NCBI GenBank assembly: GCA_035772405.1
Contig: JAYKKM010000174.1
Coordinates: 196,001 to 260,000, forward strand
Origin: Chrysogorgia sp. JL179-B06
Lineage: Eukaryota; Cnidaria; Anthozoa; Scleralcyonacea; Chrysogorgiidae
DNA: 64,000 nt
Reading direction: 5' to 3'
In this document: piece after piece, positions 17,188-63,432 of the stretch
Position numbering within the stretch: the stretch's first letter is position 1
How the letters are laid out: each line of letters begins with the position of its first letter
Position numbers and translations under genes: made by a program
The notes under the pieces: model-generated
The model's database searches: none
The model's input: the letters and a program-made list of their open reading frames with translations, nothing else
What the model was told of the DNA's origin: nothing

Positions 17188-20100
17188 CTAAATTTCGAAT
17201 TCAGCTTCGATTTTCCCTAAACATTTGTTATCTTGGTTGGTGACGTGTCCAATAGCCACAAAATACCCCTGAAAGAAATATGGAAAAATAAAGACTCAAA
17301 TTTCAGGGTTTCTGCTAGATTTATGTCAAAAAGTAGGAGAAAAGTAGGAATAAAGAAAACGTAATTAGGTTTCCTTGTCTGCCAAAAATTTCATCTTCAT
17401 GAACTTTTTTCCTGTTAAAGTTATATGAACGTGATGTCACAAGAGGCATTTTTGTGGCAAGTAACAAAAGAAAAGTGGTTTGGAATGGCTCTTGTGACAT
17501 CTCATCCGATAACTTTGACAGCAAAAAACTCCATGAAGATGAAATTTTCGGCTGACAATATATATTATGATTTTGCTCAGGAAGACCCAAATATTACGGA
17601 TATGTAAAATCCCCAAACGTGAGATAGATATAAAAGACAGGGATAAAATGCTAAAAGTTACCTTTGGAACATGACTTGGAAATGCCTTTGATTCGTAAAT
17701 AGAAATCAGGGTACCTTATGTCAGAGTAAAATGTCAATTGATTGGAACATTAATAATTAGACATAAGAATATCTATTGTTAAATATATTGCAATACTATA
17801 TATAGTAGAATTGTTCCACGATATATAGTATTGTAACGATTGTAACATATTCTTAGATATTGTTTGTTGTAATATATTCTTAGATATATGAAATATTTGC
17901 AAGCAAATAGGATTTTTATATCTTCCATCTGTCGAATTTATATTTTATTAAAGTGTCAATTTGAATAATGTAATAGCTAATGTTCGATGTCATATTACCA
18001 TAATCGGAAGGGGGTCTGTCGTGGCACGTGGGATTTCAGGTGTCATGTGATAACTCATTCACATGTCCAGCCTCAGTTGCCCTGTCCTTCAAGATATGGA
18101 TTCATCTACACCTCTAGGCGTCTCCCTCCCCCAAGAGCCTGCATTGCAGGCTACCTCTTGAAGGACAGGGCAACTGAGGCTGGACATGTGAATGAGTTAT
18201 CACATGACACCTGAAATCCCACGTGCCACGAATCAAAATATCATGTCTAGTTTGAGTCCAGGACTGGGGAATCAAACGCGCAACACGGCTCGTGATCATC
18301 GGTACAATCTCGTACCCGGATCTAGCTAGCTGCATTTAGTTACAAGGGCGCATATTGTAAACTTAAAATTCAGTCGTATCTTGAGTCCATGTGGCGATTA
18401 TTCAGATTCACACGCGCGGCCGGGGGCGCTTGGGTCTGGGAACGAGATTGCTATGGAGCACGAAGCAGTACGTACTTACCTTTTTTCATGGGACATTTAA
18501 TTGCTTCGACTCCCATGCGACAAACATCAAATGTCTCATTGTACAAAGCTCGTCCGTGATACATCGCAACTATATTCGCTTTTCCATTTACAAGGTCATC
18601 CGCTTCATAAAAAATATATATAATGAATTACTGAACTACAGTAAAAACCCGCGAGTAAGAACCTGCGTTTCCCCAAGTTAGCCTAAACAGGTTCTTATAT
18701 AAATGGTACTTAGCACAAATTGAGGCTATTTAGGTTCTTAAATAGGTTCTTACTTTCTAAAGAAAAAAATACATTGTAGCTAATAGAATTTAGTGGTATT
18801 CAGCCTGTATTCCTTATGATATAACATCTGCATACCATGTAAGTGTTTATAAAGAAATTCATGACAAAAACAGACTCTGTATAAACAATATATATATACA
18901 GTTACAGTAGTAGTGTATATATGCGGGTTCCAGCCCAAAATCTCATAAAAATCTCATTTTCTCGAGTACCACTTTATTTTCCCTGATTAAACCCTGATTA
19001 AATAGTCACTCGCTATTAGCCCCCCCCTCGTTTTCTCGAGTAAGAGATTCTCCAACAAGTTATCAGGGAAATTAGACGGAGCTTTTTATTCTCTTGACGC
19101 CCCGCCCCCAATCGAAAAAAAACTTAATCTCACTTTTTAATTTATTCACAAAACCACGTTCCATTCTAGGGCGTGGTACATTTCAAAAATAGACCCCGAA
19201 CTTATGCTAATTAGCTGTGACGTCATCATTACGCCCCGCCCACCTGTCAATCAAAACTTGTTTCGCGTTCCGTTTCAAAAACGGGTCCCGAACTTATGCT
19301 AATTAGCGATGACGTCATCATTACGCCCCACCCCCTTTTCTTTTGATTGACACCTGTCAATCAAAACTTGTCTCACATTTCACTATGCTAAATAGCAATG
19401 ACGCCCCGCCTCCTTTTCTTTTGATTGACACCCCTCAATCAAAACTTTGGTCAGCGGTCGCTCGCAAAACCTTGTTTCAATTTTCTGAAATCGAAATTTG
19501 GTCTTTAGTCTTTTAGAGAATCTCCTCCTCCTCCTCCTCGCGAGGTCTCCTCCTCCTCCTCCTCCTCGTTCCGATTTTCTGAAATCGAGATTTGACCCGA
19601 AGTCTTCTTGACCTAGGCAAAATGCCAACTCGAAAATCAAACCCTACAGGAATGGTGGCGTCAGACTATCTCTATTGTACTTGTGGCCACAAAGCGTCGG
19701 AAACTGGGATGAGACTCCACACGAAGGTCGCCCACGGCGCAAAGCCAAAAACGAGAGACTTCTTGTGTTTAAAGTGCAATGTCGTTATCCCTGGTGGAGG
19801 AAAGGAGTTTGCCAAACACGAAATGGAGACGCATCGAAGGGAGCACGACAATAATCCACAAAAGTGGTTCACCAGCGGTTAAAGATGACCTCTCGAAATA
19901 TAGTACCCTTTTCGTTTTGATTGACACCTGTCAATCAAAACTTTGGTCAACTCACTCCTCCTCCTCACTGTCGCTGTGGATCGTCTGCATCCTCTCGCTT
20001 GCAGCAACCACCGCTGACGATTTCTTGTCCGAAAAGTCAGCCAAATGCGCCACGCTCGTCTTTCTTCCTCGCTCAACGTCTCCGTCGACGAAGTCGCTAG

Positions 20101-23100
20101 TATTTTCAGACGATTGGCTTCCCCCAGTCCTTAGATCATAATTGCCACCACCTTATATCCAACCCACCCAGCACTAACGGCGAGCACCCCCTCTGTCACC
20201 GACAAGTACTTTTGCATCTCCGGTGATGGTGTGTAGTAGTCGTTCAACTCTGGTCTCTTTTGGAACTTTGCAGTCTTGCGAAGCGTCGCTGAAAGCACGT
20301 CGAGAGCCGCGTTCGTGTCGTTGATGCTGTGGTTTGCGTCCGACAAGGCGAGACGTAGTCGCGCAACTTTGTCTCTGTGAGCCACCTCTTGCTCGTTCCA
20401 CAATTCCCTATCTCGCGTGAGTTTCTCCATTGCGAGATTGTGGCGACTGATCTCCTCACCATATTTGTTCCCCTCGAGGTGTTTGAAAAGGAATCCTGCA
20501 CCTGCGAACGCAAGTGCGTTGAATAGTCCACCTGCCATCATTGCCATATCTTTATCTTACTGAGCAAATCTTGAGCAACTTTTGAGCAAATCTTGAGCAA
20601 AACCGATTTGCTTGCTTTTTGCTCACTTTCTAGTGAGCTTTGCTTTGAGCAACTTTTGAGCAAATCTTGAGCAAATCGACTTTGCTGCGTAGCAACTTTT
20701 GAGCAACTTTTGAGCAAATCTCAAGCAAACCCAAGCAAATCTTTGTGAGTAAGATAAAGATATGAGTGAAGCAACAGAGACAATCACGTCCCAAAAACCC
20801 AAGGATCCAAAGAAGGTTGAGGGAGGAAAGAGACTCGCCGCGATTAGCAAAGCTGCAAAGGCGAAGAAGGCTCAAGAAAGACTTGAGCAAAGCGAGGGAC
20901 AACGATCACGAGAGAGCAACCAACTCGTTGGTAAGCTTGGGTACGTTGTTGGAGCGATTGGTGTCGTTGGAGGGTTGTACTTTTACTTCAAACGTGACGA
21001 CGAGCCTCCACCTCGCCACGTCGTCTTCGACTCCTCGGAGGCAAACGCTCCATCGTGTTCTAGAGCATCTTCCGATGCAGACCAGGCCAAAGATTGTTCA
21101 GACCTTGAGTCTTTTGATTAAAAACTTTTCTCGTGTAATAAAAGGATGTCAGATCGAAAGGAAATAATGAACGAGGTGTACGACGCTCTGCTCTACACCA
21201 CCGCAGGAGTTGGTATTAGCATGGTGTCGAGGAAAATTCTCGGAGAATCTCTCAGCGCGCCAACCACGCTCGTGGGAACATTGAAACTCGCAGTCGCAAT
21301 CAGCGCTGGAACGATCGCTGTGAAATACGCACAACAAAAGAAGCTTATCCCAGACGACCCTTTCAAGTGAGTCGTTCGACGTGTCTCGTTTTATAAGCTT
21401 TTGCTTATAAAATCACCTTGTATCCTCAATAGACTGTGTCGCACTCTTCCTCTGAGTCTGACTCAAAGACGAATTCCATCGCTGCGTTGGCTGTCTCACG
21501 CTTTGGCTTTGACTCGACCACCTTTGGCTTTGACTCTCGAAGGGGTAGGAGACGTTTCATCCTCGTCCCACTTGGCTCCACCACGACCTCGTGCAACTTG
21601 ACTTGCAAGGAGATGCGAGCGCCAACAAAGATAGACTCAATCTTCACTGCACCGTTTGCCCAGCAGTGTTTTCCCATGAGTGACTGAACCTCCACCGGGT
21701 TGTTGTCAGGGTCAAAGAACTGCGTGAGGAACTTGTCTTGCTTTTTGTGATAGATCAGTTTCGCATACAGCGTTGGACCACGACCGGGGACCCTTTGAAG
21801 AGTGGTTTTCCCAGTCTTCTTGTCCTCAACCTTCTCCGTCTTCCAATAGAGGGGGTTTAGTCCACCTTTGGACTTGGTGAGATCGCTGTGCTCCAATTCG
21901 AATCGGTCGATCTCTTCGCGGTTTTCGACCAAGTGGTCGATACAATTGTCGACAATGGCGTCAAAGGTGTTCACCCAGACTTCCTCTTCTTTTGTAGGAC
22001 CATCGCGGTTCCACAAACACAGGGGAAAGGTAAAACCAGTGACCTTGCCAGTCTCTTGACTCGTGTTCTCCGAGACTCCAAACGAATACAGGCGCTCAGT
22101 GGGGATGATGAGCTCACCCTCCGTCCCGTCCTCGTTGCGAGTGGAAATGTTGATTCTCTTGAACGTAAGCTTGCTGTCTGGGATCTCTCCCGAAACAGGG
22201 TCAGAAAAGATCATGTGTTCTTTTGGGTCGTAACCCTTTGCGGATGTTAGCTGCGTGTTCTCGGTCATTTTGTTCCTACTCCTCGCAACTCCTTAAGCCG
22301 TTTTCAATTTCGTCTTTGAGCCGCTCGGCCTTTTTCCGCAAACCCTTCAAGTACCTCTTCCAACCATCAGCCATCGCCTTTTTGACTCGAGGACGTGTGT
22401 CTATCATCTCCTTTCTCTTCTAAACTCTTTTTCAAGCAATGTCGTACTCTAGCATCATGCTCTTGTTGATCCTTGAGATGTCGTCCGCCTCCAAGAAACC
22501 TTTCACGACTCTCAGACCATAGATCTCGCCTGACGTGCCTTTCGTTCTTTCCGTGCTCGCGAAACGTTCGTTGAAGAATATGGACCCGAACGGAGCACCA
22601 ATACTCTTAGTGTTCGCGTTAAAGGCTGAGCGAAACAACACCGTGTCGTTCACGCGTAGGTGACTACCTTTCATCAACCAATGACAAGATACGAGATGTT
22701 TGTCGGTCCCTACAAGACCAGGGGGTAGCGTACAATTGTACTCCTTTACAGGCCACCCCCCACCGTACGATAGTCGATTAGTAAGCCCTATTTTGTAACC
22801 TATAAATTTGTCGTGACTCCCATTGTCGTTACCAACGACGTACCCGTAACCACCGGACGACGGGATAGCCAACAACTTGAAAACCATAAATATAGAGACA
22901 TTGGTGTTCATAAGCGCTGGACAGTCGAAGACCATTCTGTCATTAACCAAATTCTTCACAGCGTCACCGTCGACATTTACGGTGGGACTTTTGAGGAACG
23001 TGTTTTGATGAAGACGAGATGTCCCGTCTTCTATTTGCTCCACCTTGTTGCTTCCTCCAGCGGCGTTATGATAGGTCACCTTTGCGTTTTTAACGTTCAC

Positions 23101-26100
23101 ATTAAAAACGGTCTCATAAGGTGGTCGTTCGTCTTTCTCTCTCTTTGGTTCGTCGTGTCCAAGGTACAAGCTCATTTATTACTACCGCCATTTTCTATAC
23201 ATGCTATCGATCAGGTTGAGAACCCTTTCCCACTCCTCCTCCGGAGTTGGTTTTTCGACTGGGAAGTAGTAGTTCACGAGCTCACTCACAAAAACTATGG
23301 TCATCATCATCCTTTCTCTAAAGGAGAAATTTGCTCACTATCACTCCTACCAACACCTCCAACGAAACGGGGAGCAACGAAGTCAAAGGAGACGAAGTCG
23401 TTGGTGACGTTGGTGTGTTCGGAGGAGCAGGAGTCGTGGGGGGAGTCGTTGTGCCCTTTACTTTGACCTTTGTCGCGTCTCCCTTTGCTTTGACCTTTGC
23501 GTGGGGAAGTTTCTCTAAATGTTCACCACCACTAGAGTGAGTTTTCACCGCTTCCTCCTTTGGCTTTGGACTTGAGAAGTTGAGCCCGTCGTTGTACCCA
23601 AATTTCATGTTCGTCTCAGTTGACTCTCTGAGTAAATTGTTGTACCCTGGGATAGGTGTTTTCAACAAGACCATGCTTCGCGGTATCAACCACGTGTTTG
23701 GCGTGACTGCCATGTCCAACTTGACGTTCGTGTCCTTGATGGCTTTGTTCATGAGATTAATCCACACGCTAGGTGAATACTGGACGACTGCGTCTTCTAC
23801 GATGTTCCTAAAGACTTGTTGGACTTCGCGAGCGCTTGCACGACCACCGACGATCGACTGCTTTGCCTTTGCTTGCGCGCCGAGTAACGCGTACACGTAA
23901 ACTTCGATCGACTCGTTAAGAAGCTCCTGACCTAACTCCGTTATCCCGTTGCTCACTCTCGAACAATAGCGTTTGTAATCTCCTTGGATATCTTTGATGT
24001 CGTTAACCCAAGGTCCGCTCAGAGCGAGGTGAGACCTCAACACTCTCCAATCTGGTACGTACAATCTGAGAATATTGGCGATGTCAGGTCCGCTTTTGTC
24101 GAGACGAAACATCACCCTCCTCATGGTGAAATACACGTGGAATCTCATGAGACTTGTGATCTGCTTTGGGATGTCCGGGTTTGGTGTCAGGTTTTGCAAC
24201 GAGACTCCCGACCGGTACGTGGCGATGTACATCGCAGCGATAGCTTGGTAATAGCTTTTGGACAAAGTCCACACTGTGTTCACGTTGTCCCCGTCCGGAC
24301 CATCTAGAAAACGCTTCTTCGTGTCTATCACTATCTTGGGGAGACTGGACGAAAAGGAGTTCTTGTCGTCGACGTAGATGAGGAAGTTGTTGACCGGGTA
24401 GTTGAGCGTGTACGGAGGATACGTGACATCGGAAGTCCCAGCTCGCTCCGTATGGATAAGTTTCTGCACTGTTCCACCACTGTTCCAAATCCTCGGGAAG
24501 GACACGTTGTTGTGGAGCCACTTCCACATGCTTTGGTCGTCCTTGAACGTGTCGCTGGTAATGTCAGTCGAGACAATGTCGCTATTTCGAAAGTACACGT
24601 CCACTCTCGTTACGTCACCTTCTTGTGTTTGAACTGGGTCAAACTCGAACTTGTCCATCGTCGCGTATGGGTACCTTTTCAAAAGATCCGACCTTGCTTT
24701 CTGGACAGCGATCTTTGAGTTCTTGATCACCTTGTCGTAGTTCTTTCCATAGTACGCGCGTATCGCGGACTCTATTTGGCTCGTCATTTTATTTGTATCT
24801 CTAAATAAAATGGTAAAGCTATCGGTGTTCCTCGAGAACGGGAAAAAGACAATCGCGTTGAACAGGAGTTTGATTCTCCCAAGGGGTTCGTCCCTGACCG
24901 TAAAGTCGGCTAGCGTGTTTTGGGGCTTTAAAAACGTGGTCAAAGACCTCAACGACCACATTCTCTTCAACGGAGTGAAGCACACGATACCCGAGGGTTA
25001 CTGGACTTTTGGGGATCTCGCGACGCGCTTTGCGGACGACGAAGACGTGAAAATAACGCTCACACACAACGTGCATGACCATACGTGCACGCTAAAGACC
25101 CTCCGCCCAGCGAAGCTTTATAAGTTTGGCGAGCTGCTGGGTTTCCCGACAAACACCACAATGGGCGCGATAAAGTCGGTTAGTCCTAACAGGATTGACA
25201 TCAACCGCGGACTAAGATTTGTCGAAATTCATTGCGACACCCTTGTGGACGAGACAATCGACGTGTCGGGAAAACGGAGTAGTGTGATCGCTGTTTTACC
25301 CATCACATCGGAGACGACACTCAGCGGAAGCGTGACAAATTTCCAAACGGTCGAGTCAAGTGTTCCTATCCGAAGCGGCACGTACAACACCCTATCTTTT
25401 TACACCAAGACGAACGTGAGTGGGGTAGACAAGGTGGGAGACGTTCTGCTGGATATAAACATTTTCTCTAATAAAAAGGATGGACAACGATGTTATAACT
25501 GAGCAAAGTCTAAGGGACTTGTACTATGATCCTGTGACTGGTTACCAGAGCAGGGAGAGACTCTATCAAAAAGCGCTGGAGGAAGGACTAAACGTGAGCA
25601 GAAACTCGATTAAGGAGTGGCTGGAGACACAAGACACTTACACACGGTACAAGCCTGTCGCGAGGCGACACAAGTTTCGAAAGACGTGGGTGTCAGGTCT
25701 CGGTGAGCAAGTCCAACTCGACCTTGTTGACATGGGAAAACTCAAGGATAAGAACAATGGCTACTATTGGGTGTTAACCTGCGTGGAGATCCTCAGTCGC
25801 TTCGCCTTTGCTATCCCCGTGTACCGCAAAGACACGAGAAACATGTCGAAAGCCGTGGGCAAGTTGCTACGCCAGTTCCACGAGAGATTTGGGATCTACC
25901 CCAAGCTCGCGCAGTTTGATGACGGACTCGAGTTCTACAACGTAGGTGTGAAGAGACTGTTGGAGGAGCACGGGGTCACGTATTTCTCGACAAAGTCCGA
26001 CAAGAAGGCAGCTGTGGTGGAAAGGTTCAATAGGACTTTGAAGACAAGCATGTGGAAATACTTCTACAACAAGGGGACATACAAGTGGGTAGACATCCTG

Positions 26101-29100
26101 GACGATCTCGTCGCAAACTACAACAACACAAAGCACAGTAGCACTCTCGTGAAGCCAGCGAATGTGACCAAGGACAACGAGAGTCAGGTGTGGACGACAC
26201 TCTTTGGCCACGACTTTGGTGAGTTTCCTCTCCCAAAGTTTAGACTTGGGCAAAAGGTGAGAATAAGCAAGTACAAGAGTATTTTCACCAAAGGCTACGA
26301 AGCAAATTTCACAGAGGAGATCTTTTCCGTGAGCAAGGTGGTTCGTGGAGATCCAAATGTCTATGTTCTCAACGACGAGAGCGGGGAAGACGTTATCGGG
26401 ACTTTCTACGAGGAGGAGATGTCCGCTGTCGAAAAGACGGAGGACGCCACATATCGTGTGGATAAAGTTTTGAAGAGAAAGAAGAAAATGGTCTTGGTCA
26501 AGTGGGCTGGATACGACGCAAAGCACAACTCTTGGATCCCTGTGAGCGACGTGGAAAAATTGTAGCTAAAGATAAAATGGCTGAAGGAGGTGAAGACTTT
26601 GAGATGGAAGAAAGGTTCCCAGAGTACGATAATCTAGACACTGAAGATCTTGACACAAGGCTTTTTGAACTTAACGAGAGTCTACTGACTAGTGATGACC
26701 TATTAGTCACCGAACGGATCACGTATATCGATCGGCTTCTTTTAGGCAGAGACGTAGCGGAGACGAGTTTTGGTGGGACTGACCCAGCGAGCGACGTGTT
26801 TGTCCAAGTGGACAAGTATGTCCAAGACTCCCGTGAGGGAAAGAGAATTAGCCCTCACTCGGAGAGTATTATCGAGCTTAGGAATAGGACCACCGTCAGA
26901 GACGGGAAGGTGTTTTTCAAAGAGAGATTAAGATCCGGTGGGTATTCTACCGTTGAGAGAATAGTCCTCAATAGTGTCGACGGATCGTACGTCAAGAACA
27001 CGGCAAAAAGGAACGCGAGAGCCGTGTCACAATTTGAGAAACTCGTTGACTTTGCAGTGGGTGAGACGACCACGAGCGACGAATTACCAATGACTCCTGT
27101 CGTTGGTCAGGTGATGATACCAGAGGACGTTCTCAGAAGGCTTAGTGCGGAGGATAGGCGTGTGATCAACGGTGTGTTGAACCCGTCCAACACGATCTTA
27201 CCCGAGAGTAGAATAGGTGACCGAGGAGCTATTCAACTCATGATTGATGACTTTCGTGAGCGGAGTGACGCAAATCTTGAGTTAGCAAGAGATAGTGAAT
27301 CGTACGGCGACGCTAGAGTGCATTTCCAAAAGTCGTTCGACGAAGACGCGGTGGTGGACGCCTTCGAACGACAACGAGTTCTAGAGGAGACACGAGCGGG
27401 ACAGGAGAGGGATGTGACACGTCTTGAGAAATTCAAAGAGTGGATTAAGAAAAATGCGCTCTCTCTATCCGCAATAGGGATCACAGTGGCTGGACTAGTT
27501 ACCACCATCATTGTTGGAGCAAGAGGCGCTATTGCGAAAGGAGCTGGCGCTGCGTTGTCGTTTGCCAAGGTGGTAAAAAACGCAATTGAAAAATTGGGAC
27601 CATGGGCGGTGGGGCTCGCCAACTTTGTCTATTCTGTGTTGAAAGCGGGAGCGAGTGGAATTGCATGGCTTGCGCAGAATCTACTCGTCGTTGTTATCGC
27701 TCTGGTCTGGCTGGCTATGGAGTGGTATCGGAAAAACAGAAAGTGAATTTCGTCGAGAGGTTAGGGAGAGGACATAAAAATGACCACAAGCGGAACGATC
27801 TACATGATATACAACACGGTTGACTCGGAGATTTACATTGGGTCTACACTCAAAACCGTAGAACAACGTCTCGCGAAGCACAAGACAGAGTCGAGAAGGT
27901 CGATTAATCGAAACATCAAATTGTACCGCAAAGCTCGCGAGATCGGATGGTACAATATGAGAATCTCCGAAATGGAGAAGCTACCTTGCTCTAACCTCGA
28001 GCTCAGAGTTCTGGAAGGATCATACATACAAAGAATGAAGCCTGAGCTAAACACATACAAGACCGGACTGTACTTCAACGAGTCTGGAGTGTTTGACGAG
28101 AAAAAGTATCAAAAAACGTACTACCAAACTAACACGGACAGTATCAAAGAATATCAAAAAGTGTACTACCAAACTAACAGCGAGACAATTTTAGAGAGGA
28201 CGAGAGCTAAAGTCGTCTGTGTGTGTGGTAGAGAGATTAGTCGCAGTGGCCTGTCAAAACATAAGAGGACTAGAGTTCACTTAGAAACCGTTGGCGAGTA
28301 GACCTACAACTTTTCGTAACCTTGGTGGTTACGAAATCTTTGACACACTAATAAAATGAACAGACTGACGAAGAAAGCCGGCGAGCTCAAAGTTGCGCTC
28401 GAGAAGTTTAGGGAGAACCTTTATCTCTTCATTGTGGGGGTATTATTTCTTATAAAAAATTTTTCTCGTAATAATAAATGAACAAGAACCTGTCCCATCA
28501 CGCGAAGAAGACAAAATTGTCTGACATCGTGGGATCACGTACGCGACATGTCGTGACTATGAACCCGAATAAGGCCAACCCAGGGGAGTCTCTCTACATC
28601 AACATCCCCAAACTGAAACCAGACTCTTGTCTGGTACCAGGGAGTTTAAGCATCTTGTTCGACTTTAAGAACGCCAACGTCAAGAGCTGGTTTAATAACA
28701 ACCTGTCGAAACTTTTGCAAGACCGACTTACGATCAACATGGCTGGAGAGGTCGTCTACGACAATGTGGGCGAATCGACCATCGAGGTGTACAAGGACCT
28801 TTGGAAACCCAAGATTGTGCGCGACGAAATGGTCGAGGTAGGAATCGCAGGAGAGAATCTCCGAAAGCTAATCTCCAAGGACGATAGTGGCGCCTCGAGT
28901 GGAGACGCTACGAAAGTAGCTGACGCACTCGTCTACAGTGTGTTTGGAACAAAACAGAAGATCTCCCTCGACAAGATTTTGGGGGACTCTGGGTTATACG
29001 CTCCGTACGCAATGAGCAACAACCCACAATTTGTTATCACCCTACCCCAAGCTTCTGACATTATGGTTGCGCAATCTGGTAGCGCCGTTGGCGGATACTC

Positions 29101-32100
29101 TCTTGAGAGTTTGGAGCTAGAGTACGAGACCATCGACAATATGGATCTGGCCAGTGAGATCACCAACCACTATATGGTTGGACGATCGCTCCCGTACGAA
29201 CACGTCACACTATTGAAAAAGAGTCCTTGGGGAAAGGGGGAAACATTGGTCAACGAGAACATTAACCTCCCTCGAAAGCACATGAAAGCTGTGGTGATGT
29301 TGTTCACCAAGGCTGCGACCACAAACTCGGAGGAGTTCGTCTACCCCAATATCGACAACGTGAAAGTTACCATCGAAGGTGTCCCCAACGAGGTGTACAG
29401 TCAGGGGATCCCCAAGACGCGGTACTTCTCCGAAGCCGAACGCCTCTTTGGACAAGTTGACCAGAGCGTAACACATCGGAAATTCTACAAAGACAAGTTC
29501 GCGTTGGTGGTGGACTTGCGGAGCACAAGTGACCAAACGGTTCACGGGTCGGGGAAAAGGATCATGAACACGCAGAGTGGGGTCTTGCTGGAGATTACGA
29601 AACGGGCGACAGCCACCGACTTGATTTGCAACATTTTTGTGCTGTCGGACGCTCTGTTGAACATTACGTCGGGAAACCTCAAAAGTATCCAGTACTAAAG
29701 ATGGACACTCCATTCAACATGATGATCGTAGGTCCAACCTATTGCGGAAAGACCTATTACCTTCTCGAGATGTTGGAGAAGAGACTCAAAGGAGTTTTTG
29801 ACTACATTGTTCTCCTTTGTCCCACCGTCCTCTGGAACACGACCTATCACGAGTGGAAATACTTTCACGACGAGGACTTTATCGTTCTCCCCGTGGAACA
29901 GGAGAGCGTTGACGATATGTTGAAATACGTGGTCGAGACGTTCACCGACACAAAGACGTTGATCATCCTCGACGATTGTGCGAGTGGGCAAGACGTAAAG
30001 AACAGGACGAGCGAGCTGGTGAAATTGGGTTACTCTGGTCGCCACTACGGACTCTCCACCATCGTGCTAACCCAGCAGATGACCAGCATCGCAAAACCCT
30101 ATCGAGAGAACATCTCAAGAATCACAAGCTTTCACAACACGAACCGAAAGGACATGTTGGAGCTGATCAACGACTATTTGAACGGTGTCTCAAAAGAGGA
30201 CGTGGCGTGGATTACGAAAGAGCTAAGGGAGAAGAAACACGCATGTCTAGAGATTAACCTCAGGCATCCCTACGGGCACAAAGTTATTTCTCCACCACAA
30301 TAAAGAATGAACCCTGAAGACTTTGTGAACAACGATGCGGAGGAGGAGACGAGTGACGCGAAGGAGAAGACAAACGGTGCGGAGGACGTCGCGAAAGACG
30401 TGGATAAGAAGAGAGAAGAACTCCTACTTTTGGCGAGCGATGGCGAGATCAAAAAGTCTGAAGCGTACGTTAGGAAAGCGAACGCGAAAACCATTCTAAA
30501 GTTATACGCAGAATACGAAGCCGACACACTAGAGAAGAGCACCTCGCTCTTGTGTGACTTGTTTTTGTCAAAGTTCTCCGCAATGATGGGCGGACTCGAC
30601 GCGGTGGAGAAGCCAGAGGAGATGGAGAAAGAACTGAAACGCGACCCTTATCTCAACAAGGATCTGAAAAAACTAATGTCCTATGTTACACCCATGATCC
30701 CGTTCCTTGGACTTTTGTCTGGTGGACTCACAGTGGGAACACATGTGTACAGCCATAAAAAGAAGGAGGACGAACCAATTTAAAAGGGACACGTCTCGTA
30801 GCAAAAATGAACGAATTGGGGCTAGAGAAAAAATACACGTCTGGATTTTTACTCTTTAACCAAGCTTTGCTCAAGTACGACACAAGAACCTCGGACCAGG
30901 GAGAGAGGAGCGGTTGTCTCCACGAGTCTCGAGAAGAGTACCACAATTTCACAATGGTTTGTGTTGAGTGTGGACTCGTTCTACCACGTACGGAGGAAGA
31001 TCCCGTGTACGTCCCTTTGAACCACGAGACGTACGGTATGAACAACATTAGGAGCTACAGAGACCCTCGCTGGGCAAACTCAGGCAATCGTCTCGCGAGT
31101 TTTGACAATCTACTAGCGAAAGTAAGAGAGAAGATCGACATTAGCGACCACATCCTCTCCAACGTGACGAGTGACTTTTACACTTTGGAGAGAGAGTTCA
31201 GTGACGGGAACGATTCGAACAAGAGATTTTTCAACGTCAACTTTGTCTTACAGAGACTCTTGGAACGCTACGGCGTGCATGTGGGGAGAGAACAAGGCGT
31301 TAAAATCCCAAAGAAGAACGACAGGATCGACGAGTTTGATGAGTGTTTTAATAAATGGCTGAGCTATCATGGAACAAGTACCACGACAACCTACTGAAAA
31401 AGTGGGCGGAGATGTCGAAGACCTATTCGATCATGCACTCCCTTTGTGCTCAATACTACTCGAAATGGCACGACAGACTGGGTATTCCAGTGGTCGTCCT
31501 CGGGGGTGTGACAGCTTCGTCGATTTTCTCTTCGGCTTCGCCACAGGAGGACTACCATAGGATATGGACTTATGTCAACGGTGTTTTGGCGTTGGTCGTA
31601 GCGGCGTTGGCTGGTGTCAACAATTTTTTGGGTACGGTTGAGAAGACAACAAAGCATCAAAACGCGTCGTTCAAGTACACGAAAATCGCGCTGGATATCG
31701 ACACGCTTCTCTCCTTTAGGCAAGACGAGCGTCCTTTCACCCCACAGGAGTTCATACAGTCGAAGAAACACGAGATGCTCGAGATTCGAGAGAACGTTCC
31801 GGAGGTTTTACCTTGGGTGATGGACGACTATTTGAGAAGGCTGGACAGGTCTCTGACGAACACAAAGTCAAAGGTGAACACTTACGTTGTGTCTGGGGGA
31901 AGCCAATCGTCTGAAAATACTAGCGACTTCGTCGACGGAGACGTTGAGCGAGGAAGAAAGACGAGCGTGGCGCATTTGGCTGACTTTTCGGACAAGAAAT
32001 CGTCAGCGGTGGTTGCTGCAAGCGAGAGGATGCAGACGATCCACAGCGACAGTGAGGAGGAGGAGGGGTAGAAAAAAGTCCTTACCAATGTGGTAAGGGC

Positions 32101-35100
32101 TTGTAAGCGTTAGGGAACTAATCATATGTCAAAGCGGATTCGTTAAACTCGAGCAATGTATCAGAAACCGTGTGAAGTAACATTACCAACTTGTTCTCAC
32201 CTAGTGGAACGTCTCTCGACTCACGCACGCATGTGCAAGCTTCTCGTATCAATGAGTTAATCAAGGCGATACTTCGCTCTAGGATCTCTTCGTTCACGAC
32301 ACTAGTCGTGGTCTCTCTGTTTACGTCTTTACTTTTGATCACTATCATGTTTGCCTGTTGTAGCGTGTCATCTCTCTCTTTTTTCAATTCCAAAAAAAAA
32401 AAAGAAAGGGTAGCAACAACGCCATCGCTAACTAGCGTAAGTTTGGGGTCTATTTGATAACCGCTGACCAAAGTTTTGATTGACAGGTGGGGCGTCATTG
32501 CTAATTAGCATAGTGAAATGTGAGACAAGTTTTGATTGACAGGTGTCAATCAAAAGAAAAGGGGGTGGGGCGTAATGATGACGTCATCGCTAATTAGCAT
32601 AAGTTCGGGACCCATTTTTGAAACGGAACGCGAAACAAGTTTTGATTGACAGGTGGGCGGGGCGTAATGATGACGTCACAGCTAATTAGCATAAGTTCGG
32701 GGTCTATTTTTGAAATGTACCACGCCCTAGAATGGAACGTGGTTTTGTGAATAAATTAAAAAGTGAGATTAAGTTTTTTTTCGATTGGGGGCGGGGCGTC
32801 AAGAGAATAAAAAGCTCCGTCTAATTTCCCTGATAACTTGTTGGAGAATCTCTTACTCGAGAAAACGAGGGGGGGGGCTAATAGCGAGTGACTATTTAAT
32901 CAGGGTTTAATCAGGGAAAATAAAGTGGTACTCGAGAAATTGAAATTTTTATGAGATTTTGGGCTGGAACCCGCATATATACACTACTTACAGTATTTAT
33001 ATGTAATTACAACAATAACAATTCTATTTGATTTTCAACATTGGCATTTACATTGTATTAAATTGGAGTAATAAGGCACTGTGTCTCCAAAAATGTTGAT
33101 CTGTATCTTATTCACCCAAGTGTACACATCTTTTTATATAGATTTTAGAAAATAAGAACCTGTTTCAAATTTTAGGCTAAACAGGTCCTTGTATAGACGG
33201 GGTATAACTGGCAAATTTTAGCCTAACAGGTTCTTAAAAACTAGGTTCTTACTCGCGGGTTTTTACTGTAGTCCCATTTTTTGTGCATGTCACTGAATAA
33301 TAGTATATAAGAGTGTTCAATACTAAGACTACTTACTACTTTTAACATTTGTTTTAATACTTACATAAAGTGATATTTGCCACAATTGTCCCCATTATTG
33401 ATTTTAATTTTTCGCTATAACCAAGAACGGCTTTTCCGACTTTTAAACGATCTTCGATCTTGGTATCTATACATGCAGTAAGAAATACTTCAGAGTGATG
33501 TTGTGTTTACCGGTAACAAGCACTCACCTCTTAGTAACCTGAGTACGCTAGCCCAGTTAGCCGGGCTGATTCGCTTAAACTACATTGGCAACAAAAATTA
33601 AGTTTGTCTAATATGAAAGAACTCGTAAAATGATAGAGTAACACCTTTTACAACTTTTCCGTATTTTACTTCGTTTTTGAAATATTTCTGTTTGTTTGAT
33701 ATGTAAATGAGATGGTCTCTGACGTCAGGTGCAGGGTAGAGAATTTTCACTCATTAAAACATTTTATATCTCAGTAATTGCTAAGTTTATAACGTTCATT
33801 ATCATGAGGAGTTATTATACGCACATTTTCAAGTAAATTTGTGGAACAAACTTGAAGATGAAACTAATATTTTAATGAGTGAAAATTCTCTACCAAGCAC
33901 CTGACGTCAGAGACCATCTCATTTACATATCAAACAAACTGAAATATTTCAAAAACGAAGTAAAATACCGAAAAGGTATAAAAGGTGTTACTCTATAATT
34001 TTACGAGTTCGTTCACTATAGACATCCAAAATTATATTTCAAATTAGCCTTCTCCGCAGGCAACTCTGTGTCATCCAGCTGCAATGTTTTCAGTCGATAG
34101 ACTGAGAACGTTGGAGCTAGGAAGACACAGAGAGTTGCCTGCGGAGGAGGCTAATTTCAAAGAAGAACTGGCTTTAGTTTCACTGTAGGAAGAGCATAAA
34201 GTGAATTCAAATAATCTTTTTGGGTCGAGGAAATATTTACGTAACACAACTCAGCCCCGGCTCATATAAACAGCCACCAAATAAGGTGGAAAGAATTCCC
34301 AGCGGACGTCCGCCCCTTAAATTATAAAGCCAGAATTAGCTCGCGGCGGACCGGTGGATATACTCGCGAGACCACCGAGACTGAGATATGTTATCATGCG
34401 AGATATAATCTCGTCATCTTTTAGTGAGGTTATACAATAATCAAGGTTAACAGATAGGTAACCGCGCGCGCCGCACACGATCGAGGCAAGCACGTGGTGA
34501 GAGGAGCTGGCCTGGGGACTGGCACGAACTGTCGCGCACTGCCATTAACGCACTTGTTTGAATATTGGTGTCACGCACCATCAAAATCTACAAAGTAAGT
34601 TAAATTTCCACCAATTTATTGGTGTAAAGGTGTATGTGTACCGAGTTTTCCTATAGGGCTAATAACCACTACTTTATAACAGCTTTTCCATAGTCACAAC
34701 AATACTCCCCGGAGGGCCGCTACGCAGGCTAAACAATATCCTGATTGACTTCGTTTATTTTGCCGCACACCGACCTGGAGAGGCTAGGCCTCTGGTGTAA
34801 ACGCGCAAGAACTGACCGGAAACTGACCTGGGTCTAAAATCAGTCACAGGTCAGGTCTTGCGCGTTTACATTTTAGTTTATGCTATTAATATATTCACTC
34901 CAAGAGTGCAAAGGTCAAAATCAATATTATATCTCATGATTCACTCAAGTGACTTGAAACGATGTTTTGCTTTCAAAAAAATAAACACCGGATTATCCCA
35001 GTCGGGTTCATGAATATTTTCCAAGTTGATTTCATGGTATTTTTAGGGGGATTATTTATGATCATCCGGGCTACTACCCACGCGACTAACCGGACTATGT

Positions 35101-49136: not shown

Positions 49137-52100
49137 TTAGATATAACATCCATAAATTTCAGCTCTAATACAGATGCCTGCATAGAACGTCTTAGGGTGG
49201 AATTTCACATATCGTGCACGGACTGCATTTGACAGTTTGTTGATGACGGGTGTGACATGGTCGCAGTTTCCAGTGAATACCTGTTGAACATAGGAAGAAG
49301 GAAGACATTAATTTCACGAGGTGTAACTGTATACCTGATCAGTCCTGTATCCAATATATAATGGCAAAAATAAGACATATAATATAAAATGTATGTGGCT
49401 GGATACGCCACTGACTAACCTTAACAATGTTATTTTCTTTGTACTGTTCCCACGTTGAACCATCGTCGCTAAAAGACAATTCGTATGATTTCACGTGTTC
49501 AAAATAACGATCACGACCTTCAGAAGAAAGCAAAATAGATCAAGTTAGATCTGTGCCAAACTAAGGAAATATCAAAAGTAATATTTGGCATTTCACTCGA
49601 TTAAACTACATGTTGTAAGGATTTATGGTGAAGGAAAATTTCGAGTGTTGCAATATATACATTTTAGCCGCCAAACCGAGACCAGTTGCGAGAATTGCAA
49701 CTTCAAGGCCTTCCGGCTGGAATTGAACCCGCGACCCTGCGATGTTAGTGCAATGCTCTGACCACTGAGCTACGGAAGCCATTGCTGAGAGCCTAGTCAC
49801 GAGTTCTGTATATATAAGACACTGGCAGTGAAGCCAATGAAATGAGGCGGGGCTTTCCTCAAAAATGATTTCAACGAAAACTGGCGAGTCGTCGGTAAAG
49901 AGGCAACCAAAGTAGTACAGGAACTCTGACTCTTGTTGGTGAAATTTGATCCATCAGACTAGTACCTTGGGTAGCAACAGCAGTTACTAGTTTCACTTTG
50001 CCAAGATCAATCTTCAACCACTGGTTGTCGTAGTGACCATAAGCTGCGCACCAGGCCCCTATACGTTTTGTCGAGTGGTCATCTCTCATGTAAAGCCGCG
50101 CATTTCTAGCACCAGCAACCCAGCCACCACCTATAATAAAAGAAATAACAGGGAATAAAAGCATCCATTACCCATATGATCTATCTGTTCGACCAGTCTT
50201 CCATATGTAAGTCCATCCATCTATCAATCCCAGCATCCATCCATCAGTTTTCCTCCCATCCATCCATTTATCTAGTATTCACATCCATTATTTTTCCGCC
50301 CATCCACACACACAACTATCCATTCATTCATTCTTCTATCCATCTATCAGTCTTCCGCCCATCCATCTAGCTATATCCATCCATCCATACAAAGAAACAA
50401 CGTTCAGCCAATGAATGAAAAAACCCAGACAACTTAGTAAGCTTACCTGGATGGAATTCAGTTGAAGCTTGGAAGGAATGATCTGGGAGAGCGCGATCCC
50501 AACCTAAGCCTTGTGGTTCAGAACATGTCCCTGAATAATGAAAAGATTTAAAAAATACTGAATAGGATGAAGGAAAGAAGGAAGGAAGGAAAGGAGGTAA
50601 GGGAGGGAGAAAGGAAGGAGGGAGGGAAGGAAAGGAGTGAACGAAGGAAGGAAACGAAGGGAGGGAAGAAGGAAGGGAGGGAGGAAGGAAGGAGGGAAGG
50701 GAGGAGGGAAGGAAGGAAGGAAGGAAGGAAGGAAGGAAGGAAGGAAGGAAGGAAGGAAGGAAGGAAGGAAGGAAGGAAGGAAGGAAGGAAGGAAGGAAGG
50801 AAGGAAGGAAGGAAGGAAGGAAGGAAAGAAGGAAGGGAGTGAGGGAGGGAGGGAGGGAGGAAGGAAGGAAGGGAAGGAAGGAAGGGAGGAAGGAAGGAAG
50901 GAAGGAAGGAAGGAAGGAAGGAAGGGAGGGAGGGAGGAAGGAAGGAAGGAAGGGAAGGAAGGAAGGAAGGAAGGAAGGGAAGGAAGGAAGGAAGGAAGGA
51001 AGGAAGGAAGGAAGGAAGGAAGGAAGGAGGGAGGGAGGAAGAAGGAAGGAAGAAAGAAAGAAGGAAGGAATCTACCTAATGGCCTCGGTTCGGCAACGTC
51101 GCATAAATCAATTCTATTGCAACTCTTCAAACAATGCTTTCCAACCCATTCGTCCGTTTTACAGTACCCTTTCGCTGCCATGTTTGGGCATCTTGAATCA
51201 GCATCGACACATTTGATACCTGTAGCAAATTAATAAAGATGGTCTGTCCTTTATGCAAGACCCGAAAGCCATATAGAAATGACCGATATTCATAAAAACA
51301 CATGCTTGATTCGCCATACCTCTATATTTAGGTTTGGTTGGTGGATTGATCGTTGGTTTCGTTGGTGCTTTTGTTTTTTGTGTGGTAGGTGATGGCCGAC
51401 TTGTTGTTGTTTGACGAGATGTTGTTGGAGAAGGCGTGGAAGGTCCTAACAAAATATTAAAACTATGTTAAATACTTGTGAAGTGAGGGTGAAGTGGTCT
51501 GAAGTGAGGTTGAGGTGATTTGTAAAATGACTCCATAGCCAGCGAAATGGTTTCGAGTTTCGATAGCCAGCGAAATGGTAAATGACATCATTTACCTGGC
51601 TTGCAGATCTGGCAGCTAGCCTTGCAGTGCTTCAACATGTACGAGGGATTGATATAACAGTGATTATATTTCGCCCAGTCTTTGCAGTAAACGTTCTCAT
51701 CAACACACGGCCCACAGTTTCCGCAACTTTTCCTACACACCATCAATAATGGGTCCGCCGCCGTCACACAGTAACCAGCCTTGGCCCAAGACGGGCATGT
51801 CACTTGGTCGTCGGTACAAGAAGCTGGAAAATATACAAGGAAATTGCAGGGAGGTATACAGCGACGTTATCAAAACTAAAATCCTCTGAAACGTTTTGAT
51901 AGTTTAAGACCCCTGCCCACATGAGATTGCATTAGTGATAGCTTAACATAAAAAAAAAACCCAATAACTTACCATCAGCAGATAGGACAACAGGCGCTCT
52001 TTGCACCAACTTTAATTTCTCATTGCGTTGCCTCACAACATCTACAATAAAAATACAAAATGATTTATTTTATGTTAACCCACAAAGGTGAAGGAGACGA

Positions 52101-52145
52101 CTATGCAGTGCACTAGCAGGTCTGTCTGTCTACGGTCTGTCTACG

Positions 52146-52202
<57 letters not shown>

Positions 52203-52204
52203 CG

Positions 52205-52253
<49 letters not shown>

Positions 52254-52275
52254 CGTCTGTCTACGGTCTGTCTAC

Positions 52276-52319
<44 letters not shown>

Positions 52320-52428
52320 GCGGTCTGTCTACGGTCTGTCTACGGTCTGTCTACGGTCTGTCTACGGTCTGTCTACGGTCTGTCTATGGTCTATCTACGG
52401 TCTGTCTACAGTCTGTCTACGGTCTACG

Positions 52429-52459
<31 letters not shown>

Positions 52460-54776
52460 CCTAATCAATATAATATATGACATTACCAGAACACTTATAC
52501 ATGATGTTTGCTTGTCTTGCATCGGAGTCTGTCAGTTCCACATACGGGGTTTTGCCATTTAACGGTCGCTTAGGAACAATAGTGTCTTTGTTCCAGTCCT
52601 TGGAGAAGGCGTTGAAAGGGTAGTGCATGATACTAGCGTAGTCATATGGCTCGTTAACACTGTCCACTGCACCATCAACCACTTTGTCAAAGTTATATTT
52701 CATAGCTAAAACACAGGGAAATAGAAACATCATATATATATATATATATTGGTGTATACTGTTGTGGCAAGCATGCCTTTGATTGGTTTAAGGCGAAGCT
52801 CAATACATATACTACACGAAGTAGCATCTCTTACAATCAATCACATTGTCCCAGATGATCTCAATGTAGTTGTCACGGTCGGGCCGACTTTGCTCATGCC
52901 AAAACCCAATCACGTGACCAAGCTCGTGGACCATCACGTGTTTATAATCACATCTATCTCCAATGGAAACTTGAGTTTTAACACCTTGGTATCCCACGTA
53001 ACTTGCCCAACAACTGGAAAAAAAAACACGCACATCCTTTTTATTAGGGACCTTAAGATCTATCTGCACGACGGCAACCTAGGACGGCGAGAACGGTGTC
53101 GATTGACTAGCGTATTTGACACTCAAAGCTTATTTTATGATCTCCAAAACGCTTCAATATTTCTAAAACAATTATAGTGTCTGTGTTTAAGTCAATCGTA
53201 AAGTCATACCGTGATCACATAGGAATTGTGATGGCGGTAAATAAAAAGCGCAAAGTGTTTTGAAAGCTAATTATAGATTAATGATAGAGTGAATTGCATT
53301 CTAGGCCTCACCCTCCAGATCTGAAAAACTCCAGGTAATTCTTTTGGTCGGTTCTTTCGACAAAACGAATACATGTTCTCTTTTCCCACACAGCGATGGC
53401 CTCCCTGATAGATGTAAGAACACTTGGCAGGTTGACTAAATAAATAAATAGAGAAGAAGAGTTGTGGTTAATTGTTGTTGTTGTTGTTGCTGTTGTTATT
53501 GCTGCTGCTGCTGTTGTTATTGCTACTGCTGCTGTTGTTGCTCTGCTGCTGTTGTTGTTGCTGCTACTGCTGCTGTTGTTGTTGCTACTGTTACTGTTGT
53601 TGCTGTTGTTGCTCTGCTGCTGTTGTTGTTGCTACTACTGCTGCTGTTGTTGCTACTGTTACTGTTGTTGTTGTTGTTGCTACTGCTGCTGTTGTTGTTG
53701 CTACTACTGCTGCTGTTGTTGCTGTTGTTGCTACTGCTGCTGTTGTTGTTGCTACTACTGCTGCTGTTGTTGCTACTGTTACTGTTGTTGTTGTTGTTGT
53801 TGTTGTTGCTACTGCTGCTGTTGTTGCTACTACTGCTGTTGTTGCTGTTACTGTTATTGTTGTTACTGCTGCTGTTGTTGCTACTGTTACTGTTGTTGTT
53901 GTTGTTGTTGTTGCTACTGCTGCTGTTGTTGCTCTGCTGCTGTTGTTGCTACTGTTGTTGCTTCTGTTGTCGTTGTAATTGCTGCTTCTGTTGTTGCTCT
54001 GCTGCTGTTGTTGCTACTGTTGTTGCTTCTGTTGTCGTTGTAATTGCTGCTTCTGTTGTTGCTCTGCTGCTGTTGTTGCTACTGTTGTTGCTTCTGTTGT
54101 CGTTGTAATTTTGCTCTGCTGCTGTTGTTGCTACTGTTGTTGCTTCTGTTGTCGTTGTAATTGCTGCTTCTGTTGTTGCTCTGCTGCTGTTGTTGCTACT
54201 GTTGTTGCTTCTGTTGTCGTTGTAATTGCTGCTTCTGTTGTTGCTCTGCTGCTGTTGTTGCTACTGTTGTTGCTTCTGTTGTCGTTGTAATTGCTGCTTC
54301 TGTTGTTGCTACTGCTGCTGTTGTTGTTGTTCCTACTATTGTTGTTCCCTATTGTTGTTGTTTTTCTTGTTATTATTGCTGTTGTTATTGCTGTTGTTTT
54401 TACTTACTGACACTGCAGTCAAAAACGTAAGGTATAATAGCCCCTGGCCACCTCTCACTCTCACGGCCTGATGCGGCCCGTCCTGGTGGTCCGTAGATAT
54501 TGTTATACAATTTTATATTCACTTTCTGTTTATCCGTCAGTTTAATGTCTCCTTCAACTAGACCACTCTCAATTGGCGCAGGGCTGTATTTGGGATCTAA
54601 CGATGGAGGAAAGAAAGAGAAGAGTTGCGGGAGATTCCCTTGGTTACAGGTTTCCGTTTATAACTATGGGTGTAACAACCGTGGGTCTAACCTTGTGATA
54701 GGTTGAAGGGTCCTTTCGCTGCCTCTGCAACATACACTAGAAGTAGCATCAAGGTAATGACTTTCCGCAGGAACAT
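49137..54776 (-). CDS. secreted astacin metalloprotease with ShK and discoidin domains (13 exons, 617 aa)
   Basis: Minus-strand exons 54692-54776, 54408-54596, 53312-53435, 52835-53013, 52487-52705, 51973-52041, 51596-51823, 51320-51445, 51076-51219, 50447-50530, 49966-50130, 49420-49517 and 49137-49280 are all in phase (618 codons). Exon 1 is a signal peptide ([14 protein letters not shown]); exon 2 a propeptide ending in the astacin start [13 protein letters not shown]. Exon 4 has the zinc site [11 protein letters not shown] followed by EQSRPDRD, exon 5 the Met-turn SIMHY. Exon 7 holds two ShK domains, exon 8 a Pro/Thr linker, exon 9 a third ShK. Exons 10-13 form one F5/8 type C domain. Catalytic residues are intact. 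Related proteins act in development, matrix processing or venom; which applies here is unknown. Confidence 0.93.
49707..49780 (-). repeat. tRNA-Val-like SINE head
   Basis: On the minus strand GGCTTCCGTAGCTCAGTGG, an AAC anticodon region and the B-box GGGTTCAATTCC are followed by GGAAGGCC. It resembles a tRNA but has stem mismatches and lies inside a protein-gene intron, so it is read as a SINE rather than a tRNA gene. Confidence 0.6.
50565..51070. repeat. GGAA microsatellite
   Basis: About 500 bp of (GGAA)n with GGGA interruptions, in an intron of the first astacin gene directly next to the third ShK exon. The long K/E/G/R reading frames over it are repeat artefacts. Confidence 0.95.
52122..52462. 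repeat. GTCT microsatellite with TCTACG variant
   Basis: About 340 bp of (GTCT)n interrupted by CTACGGTCTGT units. Lies between exons 5 and 6 of the first astacin gene. Confidence 0.95.
53472..54360. repeat. TTG/CTG trinucleotide tract with 65 bp higher-order repeats
   Basis: About 890 bp of mixed TTG, CTG, CTA and TTA triplets in the intron between exons 2 and 3. The right half is organised in four or five copies of a roughly 60-65 bp unit containing GTTGTCGTTGTAATTGCTGC. The poly-Leu/Cys/Val frames are artefacts. Confidence 0.95.

Positions 54777-56379: not shown

Positions 56380-63432
<7,053 letters not shown>

What the first reader, a model, noticed from the sequence alone, without database searches (positions are those of the whole stretch)
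18909..32988. Complete, young Polinton-like element with capsid, ATPase and integrase but no DNA polymerase B
Seen: 6 bp direct repeats TACAGT, 530-550 bp inverted repeats starting AGT, an intact rve integrase with chromodomain, packaging ATPase and probable capsid genes, with nearly all frames open. Known: classical Polinton/Maverick elements carry a protein-primed PolB of about 1000 residues and often a protease. Here about 19 ORFs fill the element and none is long enough for PolB. This could be a lineage that replicates without its own polymerase, a virophage-like dependent of another element, or a user of host replication.
Basis: partly seen in the sequence, partly recalled or inferred. 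Interest (0 to 1): 0.9.

Follow-up and report, generated by a model that had tools for sequence, protein, structure and literature searches.

The report
Polinton copy that lost its polymerase
This virus-like jumping element lacks a DNA polymerase because its polymerase end was replaced by a copy of its other end; most close sister copies in the same genome carry a polymerase gene there, and some small sister copies have the polymerase but not the presumed capsid genes.

Summary
In detail: window 18909-32988 is a 14,080-bp element with a 6-bp target duplication (TACAGT), ~503-bp inverted ends starting AGT, an rve/chromodomain integrase, an A32-type packaging ATPase and no polymerase. Ten of ten opened sibling elements of 16-17.7 kb carry an uninterrupted 1,211-1,243-codon PolB just beyond the point where this copy has its junction (20127/20128). 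Of 83 close sibling capsid loci, 69 show PolB sequence of one of two kinds in that slot (60 a complete open frame, 9 seen in pieces); 6, this one included, were read as lacking a whole PolB; 8 are unsettled. Here the left end carries an inverted copy of the right end (173/173 bp identical) where siblings have PolB; four siblings have the same kind of end duplication with other breakpoints. The genome also holds small PolB-bearing elements without the capsid/integrase block (one read almost whole, 11 more from junction sequence). So this is a defective, presumably helper-dependent member of a large Polinton family with a swappable replicase slot. The capsid identity of the 406-aa protein stayed unproven.

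The parts
18903..18908 (.). target-site duplication TACAGT, left
   Evidence: sequence read; same 6 bp at 32989-32994
18909..19411 (+). left terminal inverted repeat, starts AGT
   Evidence: 98.8% over 504 columns against 32485-32988
19412..19954 (.). left subterminal region of the kind found at the SLATT-side ends of siblings C504 and C476; holds an 86-aa ORF (19622-19882). Its first ~130 bp also match PolB-side ends
   Evidence: 84% to C504 (L012/L024) and 79% to C476 (L014); about 92% over ~130 bp to L026/L028; 86-aa ORF 83% to C504
19955..20127 (-). inverted copy of 31893-32065 (3' end of the SLATT gene); lies where siblings go on to PolB
   Evidence: 173/173 identical; junction 20127/20128 bridged only by the window among 40 scored candidates
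20131..20547 (-). 138-aa ORF, last gene before the replicase slot
   Evidence: no family match above cut-off
20762..21121 (+). 119-aa ORF, unknown
   Evidence: 66% match in the capsid-less C504 element
21146..21370 (+). 74-aa ORF, unknown
   Evidence: 92% match in C504
21426..22268 (-). DUF2738 protein, 280 aa; acidic C-terminus, possibly an ssDNA-binding protein (function recalled, not tested)
   Evidence: Pfam PF10927 E 8.6e-64
22432..23175 (-). 247-aa ORF, unknown
   Evidence: no match
23318..24787 (-). 489-aa ORF (547 from the first ATG), unknown, C-terminal hydrophobic stretch by eye
   Evidence: no match above cut-off, no PDB match better than E 0.68
24810..25502 (+). 230-aa ORF, unknown (minor capsid candidate by position only)
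   Evidence: no match
25480..26565 (+). rve integrase with C-terminal chromodomain, 361 aa
   Evidence: PF00665 31.5 bits, PF00385 26.4 bits; IS481-type transposase model E 1.2e-13, below its cut-off
26577..27746 (+). 389-aa ORF, unknown, hydrophobic C-terminal part by eye
   Evidence: no match above cut-off
27780..28301 (+). GIY-YIG nuclease, 173 aa
   Evidence: PF01541 39.4 bits
28478..29698 (+). 406-aa protein, presumed major capsid protein (unproven)
   Evidence: position before the ATPase; 102 of 102 scored copies open (capped list); dN/dS about 0.04 in 28 pairs of the 8 best-scoring copies
29701..30303 (+). A32-type packaging ATPase, 200 aa
   Evidence: PF04665 55.9 bits
30307..30783 (+). 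158-aa ORF, unknown
30807..31397 (+). 196-aa Zn-ribbon protein, weakly like VLTF3
   Evidence: PF04947 E 0.03, below cut-off; C504 homologue E 0.018, below cut-off
31355..32071 (+). SLATT_4-domain membrane protein, 238 aa
   Evidence: NF033632 75.5 bits, cut-off 55; Pfam PF18186 below its cut-off
32118..32498 (-). 126-aa ORF between SLATT and the right repeat; 32066-32484 has only tiny matches in the sibling ends compared
32485..32988 (-). right terminal inverted repeat
32989..32994 (.). target-site duplication TACAGT, right

Best explanation
The element is a PolB-less derivative of a large Polinton family in its own genome. Full siblings (16-17.7 kb) have a replicase slot between the 138-aa gene and the left terminal repeat. 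In this copy the slot and left end were replaced by an inverted copy of a right end, probably when a replicating genome switched strands between its homologous termini. The shortened linear genome, still with both terminal repeats and integrase, was then inserted with a 6-bp target duplication. To replicate it would need PolB from a full or capsid-less sibling acting on the shared termini. Shown: the slot, sibling PolBs, the inverted copy, termini and target duplication, and recurrence. Inferred: strand switching, loss before insertion, supply of PolB in trans. The confidence given is for derivation from PolB-bearing siblings by end replacement; the order of loss and insertion is weighed under the first rival.
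For: PolB of 1,211-1,243 codons without stop in 10 of 10 opened 16-17.7 kb siblings, between the 138-aa gene and the left repeat. Type-1 PolB carries YADFES, HNLSGYD, YLKTDV, D-NNLYG, MNNSVFGK and FTDTDS (motif roles recalled). Type-1 PolB is 38% identical over about 1,030 residues to a viral contig that also holds an rve integrase. Type-2 PolB in the same slot hits PF03175 DNA_pol_B_2 (E 2.6e-21, 3e-24 and 5.6e-15 for three pieces). The two kinds align collinearly but weakly (two of three pieces, E 2.4e-4 and 5.5e-4). Census: 69 of 83 close capsid loci show PolB sequence. Inverted copy 173/173; four other PolB-less copies carry the SLATT 3' part inverted at the left end, with breakpoints 31453, 31606, 31645 and 31692 against 31893 here, and match neither kind of PolB. 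Exact 6-bp target duplications here, in C504, C476 and C452.
Against: None of the other scored places (40 candidates) bridges this copy's junction, so there is no sign that this PolB-less form has had offspring, and loss after insertion is not excluded. The distal left part (19412-19954) matches other elements' ends, not this copy's own right end, so more than one exchange is needed. C384 and C461 share their left breakpoint region, so the five end duplications need not be five independent events. Type-1 PolB has no Pfam PolB hit, no PDB sequence hit, and its poor model had no PDB match at E below 0.001; its naming rests on motifs, the weak profile link and its size.
Confidence: 0.84

Rival explanations
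1. Same derivation, other order: a full element inserted first and lost PolB afterwards in place, by gene conversion or ectopic exchange with another copy's end. It is then a dying fossil, not a helper-dependent mover.
For: The junction is private among the scored places; the left subterminal part resembles other elements' ends; the genome holds at least 102 scored copies to recombine with.
Against: Five copies show the same kind of change with different right breakpoints, which a replication-linked process explains more simply; terminal repeats and target duplication are undisturbed.
Confidence: 0.35
2. A true polymerase-independent lineage that uses host replication.
For: 6 of 83 close capsid loci were read as lacking a whole PolB and 8 more showed none in a 1.2-kb sample (C360 among the 8 has a 25-residue trace of type-2 PolB). 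The window encodes a DUF2738 protein that might bind ssDNA (function recalled).
Against: Siblings with PolB sequence are the majority, 69 of 83. The PolB-less copies read have differing structures, so they do not look like one lineage.
Confidence: 0.04
3. Assembly artefact: the left end was mis-joined among similar repeats.
For: A 780-Mb assembly with more than 100 copies; the left and right ends share 98.8-100% sequence.
Against: Exact target duplication on both sides, an independent outer 30-bp inverted repeat flanking the insertion (18635-18664 / 33243-33272), siblings only about 78-93% alike to the window in DNA over the matched stretches, and four other copies with the same kind of structure.
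Confidence: 0.06

Closest known systems
Polinton/Maverick elements (intact vertebrate Mavericks: PMC8097293, passages seen)
   Same: 6-bp target duplications, terminal inverted repeats, integrase, ATPase, size range (12.7-24.6 kb there), purifying selection on core genes.
   Different: This copy has no PolB; no protease or recognisable capsid was found. In that vertebrate survey most copies (96%) are defective and the most intact copies in one genome is 38; here 60 of 83 close capsid loci pair with a stop-free PolB frame, and 85 of 109 DUF2738 matches are near full length without stops. 'Intact' there asks for more genes than I checked per copy.
Animal 'adintoviruses/meldviruses' with swapped replicase and virion modules (PMC11071296, passages seen)
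   Same: That preprint reports adenovirus-class virion genes joined with genomes that lack recognisable PolB and integrase, and PolB/integrase joined with poxvirus-like virion proteins.
   Different: Here the swap or loss is seen among about 80 close siblings in one genome, at one fixed slot.
Transpovirons and cytoplasmic linear plasmids (PMC11071308, abstract, outline and one section seen)
   Same: Loss of the morphogenetic module while PolB is kept, as in the C504-type small elements.
   Different: The small elements here keep the family's termini and sit integrated in the same genome as full and PolB-less siblings.
Adenovirus defective-interfering genomes with duplicated ends (recalled, no call)
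   Same: One end replaced by an inverted copy of the other, termini conserved.
   Different: Here found integrated in a genome; origin during replication is only inferred.

Membership tests
Polinton/Maverick | 6-bp target duplication and terminal inverted repeats starting AGT | tested here: met
   (the AGT rule is recalled)
Polinton/Maverick | rve integrase with chromodomain | tested here: met
   rve 31.5 bits (cut-off 32.6), Chromo 26.4 (cut-off 25.1)
Polinton/Maverick | A32/FtsK-like packaging ATPase | tested here: met
   PF04665 55.9 bits
Polinton/Maverick | protein-primed PolB | tested here: not met
   absent from the window copy; present in siblings in the adjoining slot
Polinton/Maverick | double jelly-roll major capsid protein | tested here: inconclusive
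   406-aa protein without any match; model failed
Polinton/Maverick | adenovirus-like cysteine protease | tested here: inconclusive
   no such Pfam match in the 18 ORFs scanned of 36 listed in and around the element; a very diverged one is not excluded
Virophage (helper giant virus) | dependence on a giant virus helper | not testable with these tools
   no virion or infection data; VLTF3-like match is weak

The most novel reading that the evidence does not exclude
The Polintons of this genome work as a population with divided labour. PolB-less capsid-and-integrase elements (the window type) and capsid-less, integrase-less PolB elements (the 8-kb C504 type) share termini and are replicated, packaged and inserted by each other's products or by full siblings' products. 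The replicase slot is a swap site in which two PolB kinds without clear BLAST similarity, on opposite strands, replace one another.
Probability: 0.3. Interest if true: 0.8.

Novelty: new variant of a known kind. Interest (0 to 1): 0.52.

Why it matters
It turns an apparent oddity (a Polinton without polymerase) into a readable case of how virus-like transposons lose and swap their replicase. The same genome holds full, PolB-less and capsid-less forms with related termini and mostly open genes among the copies scored, so helper dependence and module exchange among animal Polintons could be measured directly there.

Tried and rejected
A shared upstream motif TTTCTCGTNATAA as late promoter: 9 matches against 10.6 expected, dropped. 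Structure prediction of the 406-aa protein (single sequence, pLDDT 29) and of 842 residues of type-1 PolB (5 rows, pLDDT 39), with a Foldseek search of the latter that gave no match at E below 0.001: uninformative. IMG/VR scans with the DUF2738, 406-aa, ATPase and integrase proteins and with a PolB alignment: no relatives. A degenerate pattern of PolB motif B gave 16 contigs, of which 1 (L056) encodes relatives of PolB and integrase. A first dN/dS run misread three reverse-strand copies and was redone for the 406-aa gene. My first count of 13 siblings without PolB in the sample was wrong: 5 of them hold a different PolB. Of the remaining 8, C360:10923841 may be an interrupted or rearranged copy: its sample has a 25-residue type-2 PolB trace (E 1.7e-4), and a PolB (10896750) and a DUF2738 gene (10902639) lie on the same contig. 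The 19 capsid loci of the 83-84% group pair with none of the PolBs listed; the one opened (C32) has a PolB-like gene 64-74% identical, lying in two overlapping frames.

Literature: six phrases for non-autonomous, nonautonomous or defective Polintons or Mavericks and 'Polinton derivatives' gave 0 papers in the held library; searches are the other searches. I make no claim beyond those searches.

Full report
What is there. Window 18909-32988 is a complete inserted element of 14,080 bp. It lies between two copies of TACAGT, has inverted ends of about 503 bp (98.8% over 504 columns) and 17 ORFs that cover 83.4% of its length. It landed inside a host repeat with its own 30-bp inverted ends (18635-18664 / 33243-33272). 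Family matches: rve/chromodomain integrase, A32-type ATPase, GIY-YIG, DUF2738 (E 8.6e-64), SLATT_4 (75.5 bits) and a weak, below-cut-off VLTF3-like Zn-ribbon protein. The 406-, 389-, 489-, 247- and 230-aa proteins have no match above a cut-off, so the word capsid remains a guess from gene order.

No polymerase. No stop-to-stop frame is longer than 559 codons. Type-1 sibling PolBs match the window no better than E 8.8, and pieces of type-2 PolB no better than E 0.32 (20 residues at 19443-19502).

The genome. The window lies in a 780,986,399-base assembly. The 406-aa protein has 102 scored copies, all 102 without stops: 83 at 89-100% identity and 19 at 83-84%. The list holds the best candidates only (3,982 in the first look), so it is a lower bound and would not show decayed copies. 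The DUF2738 search scored all 129 candidates: 109 matches, of which the best 85 are near full length without stops and 24 are partial. Among the 8 best-scoring copies of the 406-aa gene (28 pairs) mean dS is 0.391 (0.334-0.487) and mean dN 0.016, ratio 0.041. I infer that these copies descend from long replication under constraint on the protein rather than from one recent burst.

Siblings keep PolB. The terminal-repeat search showed paired ends 16-17.7 kb apart for many siblings, about 3 kb more than here. I opened the left ends of ten such elements; ten of ten hold one open frame of 1,211-1,243 codons between the 138-aa gene and the left repeat, in the orientation opposite to the 406-aa gene. 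It starts some 430 bp beyond the point that corresponds to the window's junction (L017). It carries exonuclease and palm motifs of family B polymerases, an N-terminal D..CF and HY pattern that may be the vOTU protease described for polinton PolBs (PMC11071308; assignment mine), and an endonuclease-VII-like zinc motif. It has no Pfam PolB match. A viral contig (L056) has a 38% identical protein beside an rve integrase.

Census of the slot in the 83 close loci. 57 have a stop-free type-1 PolB at the expected place by script, with PolBs taken plus C452. One search adds 3 by hand comparison of coordinates (C143:2029075, C476:744097, C477:297939). Of the remaining 23, 17 were sampled by 1.2 kb: 4 hold type-1 PolB sequence, 5 hold type-2, 8 neither, apart from a 25-residue type-2 trace in C360. 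The other 6 (window, C437, C439, C384, C461, C3) were read at their left ends: five carry an inverted copy of the right end, and C437 keeps only the two ends of PolB. So 69 of 83 show PolB (60 complete, 9 partly seen), 6 lack a whole one, 8 are unsettled.

A second polymerase in the same slot. In C96, C421, C227, C242 and C54 the slot holds a different PolB on the other strand. Three pieces, from C227 and C96, match PF03175 DNA_pol_B_2; the other three loci match these pieces at 98-100% in protein. The pieces of the five loci are 95-99.8% identical to each other in DNA, while siblings match the window at about 78-93% in DNA over the stretches compared (other siblings, other genes). BLASTP between the two kinds gives nothing better than E 0.015, and profile comparison finds collinear weak matches for two of three pieces. 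This looks like recent spread of one replicase cassette through the family.

How this copy lost PolB. The 173 bp at 19955-20127 are an exact inverted copy of 31893-32065, the 3' end of the SLATT gene. Outside them the left end resembles the SLATT-side ends of C504 (84%) and C476 (79%), not this copy's own right end. C439, C384, C3 and C461 have the same kind of structure with other right breakpoints; C384 and C461 share the left one. A query across the window's junction was bridged only by the window (40 candidates scored). I read this as recurrent end-to-end copying, as in defective genomes of linear viruses with inverted ends (recalled), after which the product was inserted; loss in place is the main rival.

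The mirror image. C504 (8.6 kb, 7.8 kb of it read) has the same termini (96% to the window's, the closest found) and an exact target duplication GAATTG. It has an open 1,241-codon PolB, SLATT, the Zn-ribbon protein, four small genes (86, 74, 119, 158) and part of the 138-aa gene, but no match for integrase, 406-aa, DUF2738, 489-, 247-, 230-, 389-aa, GIY-YIG or 126-aa genes, and only the end of the ATPase. Of 10 further PolB loci without a listed 406-aa partner (11 of 37, C504 included), 7 show SLATT-side genes within about 3 kb of PolB (C54, C22, C87, C143, C205, C294, C61), and 3 have the usual DUF2738 side. A junction query matched both sides at 7 loci (C504, C120, C185, C54, C143, C117, C237; 40 candidates scored). 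That makes 12 capsid-less loci, 11 with a listed open PolB (C237 none listed). With, 20 of 80 listed PolBs have no listed 406-aa partner; 6 of these (C483, C144:2855410, two on C100, C360:3990250, C360:7352732) were not examined. Only C504 was read nearly whole; the rest rest on junction-region sequence. Four junctions align at 83-90% identity, so this form is old or recurrent.

Verdict. What stands is a PolB-less, probably helper-dependent member of a high-copy Polinton family with a swappable replicase slot and a complementary capsid-less form. Not shown: virions, movement of any copy, dependence on a helper, identity of the capsid protein, and the name of the host.

Noticed in passing
L075, L091, L090 (C227, C96) and L072, L077, L079, L088, L089: A second, Pfam-recognised PolB on the opposite strand fills the replicase slot in five siblings and is 95-99.8% identical between them in DNA, more alike than the sibling-to-window matches elsewhere in the element.
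   Followed up: partly
L024 (C504) and C54, C22, C87, C143, C205, C294, C61, C185, C120, C117, C237: Capsid-less, integrase-less small elements (8.2-8.6 kb for the two whose both ends were found) with the family's termini where seen; 11 of 12 loci have a listed open PolB. Only C504 was read nearly whole.
   Followed up: partly
G000:C142:1873077-1949527: Seven partial DUF2738-like matches on one strand, five with an open frame of the same length (213 aa) and six of them about 9.8 kb apart: looks like a tandem array of another element or virus-derived unit.
   Followed up: no
G000:C100:966540-976149: Two open PolB genes in divergent orientation, 2.2 kb apart, without a listed 406-aa partner.
   Followed up: no
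G000:C162:433976 and 449453: Two 83-84% subfamily copies 15.5 kb apart on the same strand with equal scores: perhaps tandem.
   Followed up: no
L070 (C32): In the one opened copy of the 83-84% subfamily the PolB-like gene lies in two overlapping frames (689 and 563 codons) rather than one; whether other copies share this was not checked.
   Followed up: no
window 32066-32484: The stretch with the 126-aa ORF between SLATT and the right repeat has only tiny matches in the sibling ends compared; origin unknown.
   Followed up: no
window 20560-20740: 11-bp repeats (TTGAGCAAATC and variants) in several short runs between two divergent genes; possible origin or control region.
   Followed up: no
window 50500-52800 and 60500-61000: Host-side frames that look by eye like ShK-type cysteine domains and an astacin-type protease (recalled), hinting at a cnidarian-like animal host; not tested.
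   Followed up: no
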